DNA of 62,373 nt from Gemmatimonadota bacterium (GTDB taxonomy: Bacteria; Gemmatimonadota; Gemmatimonadetes; Longimicrobiales; Gaopeijiaceae), in contig JAQBXY010000020.1 in assembly GCA_027623325.1 (NCBI GenBank), positions 1 through 62,373 of the forward strand, written 5' to 3'. Position numbers and translations under genes: made by a program. Below the pieces are notes generated by a model. The model saw only the letters and a list, made by a program, of their open reading frames with translations. It was not told the DNA's origin and searched no databases. Of this stretch, positions 12,671 to 61,980 are shown piece after piece (position 1 is the first letter of the stretch; each line of letters begins with the position of its first letter).

Positions 12671-12727
12671 CTACGTCGGAGTTACCCGACCCAGGCCGCC
12701 TCCCCACGGAGGTGTTTGGCATGGCTC

Positions 12728-12905
12728 GGGTGGGTCACGTCTCCTGGCTCGAGGCCGCTTGCTCGCCTTCCCGGGGATTTCTCCCCAGTGGCATTTCCGA
12801 GCAACCGTTTCCGCCCGCTATCCGGACGAACCTCTTACAGTGGCGGGGCCGCGCCGGTCTCTCACCGGCTTCCGTAACGACCCACCCGCCTTATCTATTG
12901 CGCAA
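12728..12905 (-). ncRNA. Cobalamin (B12) riboswitch
   Basis: Read on the minus strand, the conserved pieces occur in the expected order: GGAAGCCGGTGAGAGACCGG (P3-P4 region), GCGGCCCCGCCACTGT, then GCCACTGGG with GGGAAGGCG, and finally the B12 box AGCCAGGAGACGTG. The outer closing helix is perfect: GGGTGGGTC (12879-12887) pairs with GACCCACCC (12728-12736). An intrinsic terminator follows, so adenosylcobalamin binding is expected to shut off the TonB receptor by premature termination. The boundaries are approximate by about 20 nt on the 5' side. Confidence 0.93.
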
Positions 12906-45543: not shown

Positions 45544-45573
45544 ACACAGTTAAGGTAGGACTCGAATAAAAAT

Positions 45574-45669
45574 GCCCCAGGCAACCCGCAGCGACGATCA
45601 CCGCACTTACCGCTGCTACCTGCGGGGTCCTGACGGGATTCGTGAGCTTTCGCCCTGCGGACCTGGGGC
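45574..45669 (-). ncRNA. ffs: Small signal recognition particle RNA (4.5S type)
   Basis: A 96-nt minus-strand RNA whose ends pair: GCCCCAGG + CCGCAG at the 5' end with CTGCGG + CCTGGGGC at the 3' end. The Ffh-binding core is recognisable: ACGAATCCCGTCAGG on one side and AGCAGCGGTAAG on the other. ATTTTTATT follows the last base, a good terminator. The position directly upstream of dnaX is the usual place of this gene in many bacteria. The apical part is ACC-CCGCA-GGT instead of the usual stem capped by GGAA. No covariance search was run; identity rests on core sequence, helix and context. Confidence 0.85.
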
Positions 45670-52079: not shown

Positions 52080-52535
52080 TCAGCCCTCCTCACGCTCCAC
52101 TCTGACTTCGATCTCGATTTCAACTTCGGCATGCAGCCGGAGGGTGACATTGCTCACACCGAGCACCTTGAGCGCCTCGTCCAACTGCACGGCCTTCTTG
52201 TCGAGCTCGAAGTCCAGAGAGCCTCCGTTTACCTGATCCACGATATCGGCCACGGTGACAGAACCGAACAGCTTCCCGTCGTCACTCGCACGCTCCAAGA
52301 ACGTGAGGGTGAGCCCCTCGAGCTGCGACGCACGACGGCGAGCTTCGAGGAAGTCGCGCCGCGAACGTTCCTGGGCCAGAACATGCTCTTCCTCGAGGCG
52401 CTTCATGTTCGCCTCGCTGGCCGAATAGGCCAGACCCTGGGGAATGAGGTAGTTGCGCCCATAGCCCTTCTTTACCTGAACGACCTGGCCCGCTTCGCCG
52501 AGGTTATAAACCGTCTTCTTCAGAATGAGCTTCAT
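52080..52535 (-). CDS. rplI: Large ribosomal subunit protein bL9
   Basis: Ribosomal protein L9 of 151 residues. The N-terminal domain MKLILKKTVYNLGEAGQVVQVKKGYGRNYLIPQG (shown only as a landmark region, residues 1-34) is diagnostic through its G-x-G-Y-G-R-N-Y-L-I-P segment. The connecting helix and the C-terminal RNA-binding domain with GKLFGSVTVADIVDQV follow. It lies 19 nt after the DUF2232-like gene. Confidence 0.96.
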   Translation of the reverse strand: MKLILKKTVYNLGEAGQVVQVKKGYGRNYLIPQGLAYSASEANMKRLEEEHVLAQERSRRDFLEARRRASQLEGLTLTFLERASDDGKLFGSVTVADIVDQVNGGSLDFELDKKAVQLDEALKVLGVSNVTLRLHAEVEIEIEVRVEREEG

Positions 52536-52554: not shown

Positions 52555-53490
52555 TCAAGCGGTCAGAGCCGCGCGGGCGCGCAGGTCCAACCACGTGTCA
52601 GCAATTCCAATGAACACCGCGAATCCGATCACGACCGGAGCCGCGAAGACGAATCCCAGCGCGAACATCACATACGTCAAGAGCGAGAGGCCGCCGGTCA
52701 AGAACAAAAAGACCCCGGCTCCCCGTACTGCATACAGCGCACCCATGAACACCGATACATTAGCGCCCACTCGCGTAAGCGCCTCCCCAGATCGGACGGC
52801 CATGAGAAAAAGCCCGACGATCATCAACCACACCAGGTGGTCGTTGAATCGGAAACCACTCAGCGGACCCAGTCCGCGATCACTCCCCTGCACCAGGCGA
52901 ACATACAGCCACCATGCCACCCCCAAGGCGGCGACGGATTCCAGCGCGACCATCGCCGGAAACACCGCCGCTTGGGCTTCCACCGTCTGATAAATCGCGG
53001 AAACCATTGCCGGGGGTACAGCCTCGCCCTGTCGAAGGACGACCATCGCGTCCATCCACGTGCTGAACCCCGTTCGAAGCCGATCCGTCACGCTCCAGTC
53101 GATCGCGGCCCAAGCACCAGTGCGAAGGGTCAGGATGCCGCCCCACACCGCTGCGGTCCCGATCACCGACGCCAGAGCCCGCGAAGCGAGCCCCCACCGA
53201 GGTACCGCCATGGTTAGTGCAACAAAAACGCCCCCGAGCATGAGCGCCCATGCCCTCTCGGTGAACCAAAACGCGTCTTGCGTGCCAACGACGGTTACCA
53301 ACACCGCCATGCCCGTGACGAAGAACACTGGAGCTCCGCGCCCACCTCTCAAACCCAGGAGCACGAGCAGCGGTACGGCGACAAGAACCGAGGGCTGTAC
53401 GACCGAAGTCGCCATCGCGACCGCGAAGAGCCCGAGGGCCCTGCGCCATCCTCGCGAAGTATCGTCCCCCACGGTTCCCGAACGCTCCAT
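52555..53490 (-). CDS. DUF2232-like integral membrane protein
   Basis: Membrane protein of 311 residues with about eight hydrophobic segments. The layout and the motif LSGFRFNDHLVWLMIVGLF resemble DUF2232/YybS, which in Firmicutes also sits between rpsR and rplI. YybS-like proteins have no established function. It starts 6 nt after the S6-S18 gene stop. Confidence 0.78.
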   Translation of the reverse strand: MERSGTVGDDTSRGWRRALGLFAVAMATSVVQPSVLVAVPLLVLLGLRGGRGAPVFFVTGMAVLVTVVGTQDAFWFTERAWALMLGGVFVALTMAVPRWGLASRALASVIGTAAVWGGILTLRTGAWAAIDWSVTDRLRTGFSTWMDAMVVLRQGEAVPPAMVSAIYQTVEAQAAVFPAMVALESVAALGVAWWLYVRLVQGSDRGLGPLSGFRFNDHLVWLMIVGLFLMAVRSGEALTRVGANVSVFMGALYAVRGAGVFLFLTGGLSLLTYVMFALGFVFAAPVVIGFAVFIGIADTWLDLRARAALTA

Positions 53491-53496
53491 CAGACG

Positions 53497-54150
53497 TCAG
53501 CCGTCGTTGCGCCGAGTGTAAGGCAGCAGCGCCAGGTACCGAGCCCGCTTGATGGCACTCCCCAGCTGACGCTGGAAGGCCGCCGTCACCTTCGTCGTGC
53601 GCTTCGGTAGGATCTTCCCTTGCTCCGTCACGAAGTGTGCGAGCGTGTTCACATCCTTGTAGTTGAGCACGAGAATGCGAGGGCCTTCCATTCGACGGCG
53701 GCGGCCACGCGACCCCTGGAACTCCGGCGGACCACCATCGTGATCACGGTCCCCGCGATCACGGTCGCCGCGGTCGCCGTCATCGTCCTCTTCCTCCTCG
53801 TCGTCGTCGTCCTTCCGATCACGAACGGGGACATCGGCCATGATGGACTGGCCGTCCGTCGGCTCACCCTCATTGAGAACGAGGAGGTAACGCATCACCT
53901 CTTCGTCCAGCTTGATGAGGCGTTCGAATTCCGGGAGTGCATCGGCAGCAGCCGTGAACTGAGCCACGACGTAATACCCGCTGGAGAGCTTGTTGACGGC
54001 ATACGCCAGTTGGCGCACACCCCAGTGCTCGACACCGGAGATTTCGCCACCCTGGGAAAGCGCGAGCGCGTGGAACTTCTCGAGCTTGGTGGTCACGGCG
54101 GCTTCTTCGAGCGCCGGATCCAGGATATAGACAACTTCGTACAGTCGCAT
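53497..54150 (-). CDS. rpsF-rpsR: Fused ribosomal proteins bS6-bS18
   Basis: One open frame of 217 residues encodes two ribosomal proteins that are normally separate. Residues 1-95 are S6 (MRLYEVVYILDP, WGVRQLAYAVNKLSSGYYVV, FERLIKLDEEVMRYL). Residues 96-145 are a linker, strongly acidic (RKDDDDEEEEDDDGDRGD) then Gly/Arg-rich. Residues 146-217 are S18 (NYKDVNTLAHFVTEQGKILP, RTTKVTAAFQRQLGSAIKRARYLALLPY). The usual ssb gene between them is absent. S6 and S18 form a heterodimer on the 30S platform, so a tether is mechanically plausible. The start was chosen at the S6 N-terminus behind GAGGG. An ATG at codon 104 could in principle start a separate S18. Confidence 0.93.
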   Translation of the reverse strand: MRLYEVVYILDPALEEAAVTTKLEKFHALALSQGGEISGVEHWGVRQLAYAVNKLSSGYYVVAQFTAAADALPEFERLIKLDEEVMRYLLVLNEGEPTDGQSIMADVPVRDRKDDDDEEEEDDDGDRGDRDRGDRDHDGGPPEFQGSRGRRRRMEGPRILVLNYKDVNTLAHFVTEQGKILPKRTTKVTAAFQRQLGSAIKRARYLALLPYTRRNDG

Positions 54151-54182
54151 CTTCGTTTCCCTCGGTCCGTGAGTTCCTACGG

Positions 54183-54230
54183 GCTCCGTCAGCGGGGCAC
54201 CTCTCATGCGGTGAGGGCGCCCGACGGAGC
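54183..54230 (-). promoter_or_regulatory. Structured leader, candidate S6:S18-binding autoregulatory RNA
   Basis: On the minus strand GCTCCGTC (54223-54230) pairs perfectly with GACGGAGC (54183-54190). Inside, GGGCGCC-CTCA pairs with TGAG-A-GGTGCCC (one bulged A, one G-U) around the loop CCGCA. A 3'-side bulge reads (C)CGCT. A closing stem, a bulge containing CCG and an inner hairpin is the arrangement described for the S6:S18 mRNA motif. It ends 32 nt before the start of the fused S6-S18 gene. Confidence 0.6.
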
Positions 54231-54339
54231 GGGATGATTTTTTACAGCCGCGCCATACGTGGCGCGGCGATTAACCTAGTGGAAGCCCCCAACACGGGGA
54301 AGCCGACTCTAGTGCGGAAGCCTTCCTCGTATCGGCAGC

Positions 54340-61909: not shown

Positions 61910-61980
61910 TTGGCCCGGGTGGATTCGAACCACCACTGCCGGATCCAAAGACCGGTGTCCTGCCGTTAGACGACGGGCCA
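61910..61980 (-). tRNA. tRNA-Gln (anticodon TTG)
   Basis: Seven-base acceptor stem TGGCCCG with CGGGCCA, D-stem GTC/GAC, anticodon stem CCGG(T)/(T)CCGG with loop CTTTGGA, and T-arm GGTGG-TTCGAAT-CCACC. The anticodon is TTG. The 3' CCA is not encoded. The TGGCCC... and anticodon features match tRNA-Gln. It is encoded about 45 nt before the secreted protein gene on the same strand. Confidence 0.95.

What the first reader, a model, noticed from the sequence alone, without database searches (positions are those of the whole stretch)
54183..54230. Leader RNA ahead of the S6-S18 fusion resembling the S6:S18 autoregulatory motif
Seen: an 8-bp closing stem, inner 11-pair hairpin, and CCG both in the 3' bulge and in the loop, ending 32 nt before the start codon. 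Known: the S6:S18 complex represses its own operon by binding a leader with a CCG-containing bulge. Inference: here the regulator would be a single fused protein, a natural test case of that circuit.
Basis: partly seen in the sequence, partly recalled or inferred. Interest (0 to 1): 0.6.

Follow-up and report, generated by a model that had tools for sequence, protein, structure and literature searches.

The report
Operator RNA before fused S6-S18 gene
Just upstream of a gene in which two ribosomal proteins (S6 and S18) have merged into one, a lineage of Gemmatimonadota bacteria keeps a conserved RNA fold that very probably lets the merged protein switch off its own production; it is a modified form of a known bacterial RNA switch and is larger than the hairpin first noticed.

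Summary
The 48-nt hairpin is real, but it is only one helix (P2) of a larger conserved leader (54158-54234, minus strand). In 80 distinct leaders of the same Gemmatimonadota family the constant parts are P1 (UCCC/GGGA, overlapping the Shine-Dalgarno tract), the base of P2, a second hairpin P3 (CCGU/ACGG), and an unpaired ACC(G/A)N just before the P1 3' strand; its CC is invariant (80/80). A covariance model trained without the window finds the leader at E 7e-13. Split-gene relatives share the architecture, with two-sided changes in P1 and P2. It matches the published rpsF-leader topology (CCG in a 3' bulge, SD in the closing stem), although Rfam RF02893 itself does not match. The gene is a true S6-S18 fusion, the genome's only S18, with the S18 KRAR and S6 RQLAY residues kept; the fusion arose once. 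Best reading: an autorepression operator of the rpsF-leader kind, in a P3 variant, answering to a fused repressor. Binding and repression are inferred, not shown.

The parts
54231..54234 (-). P1 5' strand, UCCC
   Evidence: MFE; CC(C/U) in 80/80 family leaders; aligned by model R1
54183..54230 (-).
54167..54182 (-). P3 hairpin CCGU-AGGAACUC-ACGG, inserted in the 3' bulge
54162..54166 (-). J3/1, unpaired ACCGA; CC at 54164-54165 invariant in 80/80; proposed S18 contact
54158..54161 (-). P1 3' strand GGGA; with 54162-54163 forms the Shine-Dalgarno-like GAGGGA
53497..54150 (-). S6-S18 fusion gene, 217 aa; S6 about 53875-54150, S18 53524-53670, acidic linker between
   Evidence: single origin in the tree (100/99)
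52555..53490 (-). DUF2232 membrane protein, next gene downstream
52080..52535 (-). rplI (ribosomal protein L9), downstream on the same strand

Best explanation
The leader is an S6:S18-type autoregulatory operator. Free S6-S18 fusion protein binds the CC(G) of J3/1 (mimicking C719/C720 of 16S rRNA) together with the P1/P2/P3 junction. This stabilises the short P1 helix, whose 3' strand is the Shine-Dalgarno tract, and blocks translation of the fused gene and, by coupling, of its operon. When 16S rRNA is being made, the fusion binds rRNA instead and translation resumes. Shown here: the fold, its conservation, covariation in P2 and (between families) P1, the invariant CC, the overlap with the SD, the fusion and its conserved RNA-contact residues. 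Inferred: binding, repression and the direction of the switch.
For: Independent fold by RNAalifold and 94.2% of cells paired, 18 two-sided changes versus 3.5 in shuffles, 34-50% paired when slid; model trained without the window finds it at E 7e-13, and in the whole genome at 3.7e-11 with the next hit at 0.12; CC 80/80 and GGG 80/80, GGG 4-16 nt from the start codon; same P1-P2-bulge-CC-P1' layout in split relatives, with U-A in place of C-G in P1; same layout and CCG-to-P1' spacing as the E. coli leader in RF02893; in E. coli the cytosines, S18 K60/R61/R63 and the S6 44-49 loop are needed for full repression (PMC4647458), and the fusions keep KRAR invariant and RQ(L/M/F)AY in 36 of 39.
Against: RF02893 does not match the window even at E 10, and the split-gene model R2 does not find it either. 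P1 and most of P3 hardly vary inside the family, so covariation there is thin. P1 is only 3-4 bp. J3/1 third base is G in 61 and A in 19. No binding or expression data exist here.
Confidence: 0.75

Rival explanations
1. One reading: the protein recognises the CCG in the bulge or loop of the 54183-54230 hairpin itself.
For: CCG is in the P2 loop, and CCGC(A/U) is conserved at the apex in 32 of 40 long-P2 leaders against a shuffled mean of 3.8, so a second contact there is possible.
Against: Half of the family has a short P2 without that apex; CC in the bulge in 11 of 40, CCG in 7 of 40; split relatives put the CC next to the SD.
Confidence: 0.06
2. A structural leader without a protein ligand: P1 tunes access to the SD or P2/P3 protect the mRNA.
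For: The fold is stable on its own and P1 covers the SD; covariation alone does not name a ligand.
Against: The unpaired CC is invariant in 80/80 and kept beside the SD in split relatives, which simple occlusion does not need; the position and layout equal the proven operator of E. coli (PMC4647458).
Confidence: 0.14
3. The leader answers to another ribosomal protein or factor, for example L9 from the same operon.
For: The operon also encodes L9, and r-protein leaders differ between phyla (PMC4647458).
Against: The CC + SD layout is that of the S6:S18 leader (PMC10931766 section 2.4); no other Rfam family matches.
Confidence: 0.05

Closest known systems
RpsF leader / S6:S18 complex-binding motif (Rfam RF02893; Matelska 2013, Fu 2014, Babina 2015)
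   Same: 5' UTR of rpsF; closing stem holds the SD; hairpin contiguous on the 5' side; 3' bulge ending in CCG plus one nucleotide before the closing strand; downstream genes S6, S18 and L9.
   Different: Bulge holds an extra hairpin P3 (17-23 nt bulge region instead of 12); third base of CCG may be A; short G-C P1; the regulator is one fused chain; no score with RF02893.
16S rRNA platform site of S6:S18 (C719/C720 next to helix 23a)
   Same: Conserved CC in an unpaired segment beside a helix, contacted by S18 K60 and R63 (PMC4647458).
   Different: Only the CC context is compared, from the paper; the 16S of this organism was not readable here.
L10(L12)4 leader of rplJ-rplL
   Same: Autorepression by a complex of r-proteins.
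   Different: Different RNA (kink-turn, PMC10931766) and proteins; partners are not fused.

Membership tests
RpsF leader (S6:S18 operator) | Located in the 5' UTR of rpsF, just before the start codon | tested here: met
   54158-54234, 8 nt from P1' GGG to the ATG
[quoted passage not shown]
   CC 80/80, third base G 61 / A 19; layout as in RF02893, with extra P3
RpsF leader (S6:S18 operator) | Closing stem includes or overlaps the Shine-Dalgarno | tested here: met
   GGG of P1 lies in GAGGGA, 4-16 nt before the start in all 80
RpsF leader (S6:S18 operator) | Helices supported by compensatory change | tested here: met
   P2 inside the family; P1 between families and in split relatives
RpsF leader (S6:S18 operator) | Score above the gathering cut-off of Rfam RF02893 | tested here: not met
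   No match at E 10; E. coli scores 110.1 bits. None of 13 split and 3 fused relatives matched either, so that model looks narrow
RpsF leader (S6:S18 operator) | Binds the S6:S18 complex and represses translation | not testable with these tools
   needs gel shift and reporter assay
S6-S18 fusion protein | Both domains in one uninterrupted frame, with no separate S18 gene | tested here: met
   that the product stays uncleaved was not tested

The most novel reading that the evidence does not exclude
This family's operator is a distinct three-way-junction class (P3 plus fixed J3/1) read by a single-chain repressor, so that regulation no longer depends on free S6 meeting free S18; in long-P2 members the conserved CCGCA apical loop makes a second contact.
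Probability: 0.2. Interest if true: 0.65.

Novelty: new variant of a known kind. Interest (0 to 1): 0.5.

Why it matters
In E. coli the S6:S18 heterodimer is the effector, which ties regulation to the balance of two proteins. Here the two halves have become one chain, yet the operator is kept across a whole family. That is a natural test of whether the circuit senses complex assembly or only spare rRNA-binding capacity. It also extends the rpsF leader to Gemmatimonadota, in a structural variant that the current Rfam model does not see.

Tried and rejected
Rfam as sole judge: RF02893 is too narrow here. CCG in P2 as the operator: rejected by the short-P2 half of the family. Translation start at the in-frame ATG 54205-54207 inside the P2 apex: rejected, the listed relatives carry other letters there and S6 starts at MR(L)YEVV. 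Internal start for a separate S18 at the Met before EGP: position not conserved (M 23, V 7, I 2, H 2, L 1, no match 4), so one polypeptide is the simpler reading. P3 as a consequence of the fusion: not supported, since G396 has split genes with a P3 leader. The 28.6-bit R1 hit in G023 is not before an S6 gene. 16S comparison failed because no 16S was readable. AlphaFold2 of the fusion folds both domains with a disordered linker (mean pLDDT 78.8, pTM 0.70), and the S6 part matches solved S6, but coordinates could not be read, so the S6-S18 contact was not tested. My first automatic assignment of P1/P2 in split relatives was too loose and was redone with limits. The founding papers (Matelska 2013, Fu 2014) were not held.

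Full report
Observation. The hairpin at 54183-54230 (minus strand) is as described: 8 outer pairs, 11 inner pairs, 32 nt from the ATG at 54150. It is far more stable than shuffled sequence (z = -4.97). The loop is CCGCA; the 3' bulge is CGCU, so 'CCG in the bulge' needs a paired C. Folding the whole leader gives more: UCCC (54231-54234) pairs with GGGA (54158-54161), and a second hairpin CCGU-AGGAACUC-ACGG (54167-54182) follows P2, leaving ACCGA (54162-54166) single-stranded.

The gene. The 217-aa product holds S6 (PF01250) and S18 (PF01084) in one frame, and is the only S18 in a genome rated 100% complete. The linker is acidic. In the search of 394 genomes of the phylum, about 75 genomes of the same family show one uninterrupted match across both domains (my count of the listed rows). 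The 29 loci examined from other families are all split. Titles of close relatives name the phylum Gemmatimonadota. A tree of the two domains gives one origin of the fusion (100/99).

Comparative leader. Leaders from 96 loci of the family gave 80 distinct ones. Constant: P1 CC(C/U)/GGG, the base of P2, P3 CCG(U/C) with (A/G)CGG in nearly all, and J3/1 = NCC(G/A)N with CC in 80 of 80. The ten positions upstream carry only 0.03-0.84 bits each. P2 length is bimodal (19-28 and 44-54 nt, 40 each), so the upper part of P2 is dispensable. The regular expression used to extract the leaders itself asked for CC in J3/1, GGG, and GC at the ends of P2; all leaders of the family that were tried matched it, so the 80/80 counts are not a product of dropped leaders.

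Structure test. On 38 short-P2 leaders RNAalifold returns P1, P2 and P3 unaided. Pair counts give 94.2% standard pairs, 18 two-sided changes against 3.5 +/- 1.7 in shuffles, and 34-50% paired when slid; 17 of the two-sided cells are in P2, one in P3, none in P1. Shuffles do not remove relatedness, so I lean on the slid controls and on changes between families. A covariance model from these 38 (window and all long-P2 leaders left out) finds the window leader at 47.9 bits, E 7e-13, and is specific in the whole genome: E 3.7e-11, next 0.12.

Split-gene relatives. The same model finds the rpsF leaders of most f2, f3 and f9 loci at 19-33 bits, but not those of f4, f5 or f7, nor E. coli. By direct search, 27 of 28 split-gene leaders could be given the layout P1-P2-bulge ending in CC(G/A)-P1', though for L027, L120 and L125 the automatic assignment is doubtful. 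CC(G/A) followed by the SD occurs in 26 of 28 against a shuffled mean of 9 and maximum of 15. The P1 pair next to P2 is U-A in 18 and C-G in 3 of 27 split leaders, but C-G in 76 of 80 family leaders: a two-sided change, though possibly one event. A 12-leader alignment of split relatives has two-sided changes in both P1 and P2. The reverse model R2 finds f5 and f11 leaders and a few family members weakly, not the window and not E. coli, so detection between groups is partial.

Comparison with the known motif. Rfam RF02893 scores E. coli at 110.1 bits; its structure is a closing stem with the SD, a hairpin contiguous on the 5' side, and a 12-nt 3' bulge ending CCG-U before the closing strand. 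The window has the same order and the same spacing (CCG + one nucleotide + P1'). [quoted passage not shown] Babina et al. showed in E. coli that both proteins are needed for repression, that changing the two cytosines abolishes it, and that S18 K60, R61, R63 and the S6 loop 44-49 matter (PMC4647458). The aligned fusions keep K-R-A-R invariant, and 36 of 39 keep RQ(L/M/F)AY. But RF02893 does not match the window, so I do not file it as an Rfam member; the claim is that it works like one and has the same defining anatomy.

Mechanism. Most likely, surplus fusion protein binds J3/1 and the junction, holds the SD in P1 and represses the operon; new rRNA draws it off. Fold, conservation, SD overlap and contact residues are shown; binding and repression are inferred. 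P3 in the CCGU/ACGG form is peculiar to this family among the relatives seen (f9 has a different, longer insert in the bulge). It is not strictly tied to the fusion, since G396 has a P3 leader with split genes.

Novelty. No paper on an S6-S18 fusion or on this leader in Gemmatimonadota came up in a library limited to open licences, and no fused chain is in the PDB list shown. I rate it a new variant of a known kind.

Noticed in passing
54207-54211 (P2 apical loop) and long-P2 relatives: Long-P2 leaders share an apical CCGC(A/U) loop in 32 of 40 (shuffled mean 3.8) on a stem of varying sequence: a second conserved element of unknown role.
   Followed up: partly
54247-54268 minus strand: A GC-rich hairpin lies upstream of P1 in the window; most same-genus leaders have a hairpin there with different letters, possibly near the mRNA 5' end.
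   Followed up: partly
   Followed up: partly
L144 (genome G102): A fusion of about 345 aa, with an Ala/Asp/Gly-rich linker far longer than in the other fusions (206-257 aa).
   Followed up: no
L139 (genome G377): S6 and S18 parts lie in overlapping different frames near the end of the linker, probably a sequencing frameshift in a fused gene.
   Followed up: no
53524-53670 minus strand: The fused S18 lacks the Cys-rich N-terminus (CPxCE type) that most split relatives carry.
   Followed up: partly
12717-12899, 45571-45669 and 61910-61980, minus strand: Cobalamin riboswitch, small SRP RNA and a tRNA, all over the Rfam cut-offs.
   Followed up: no
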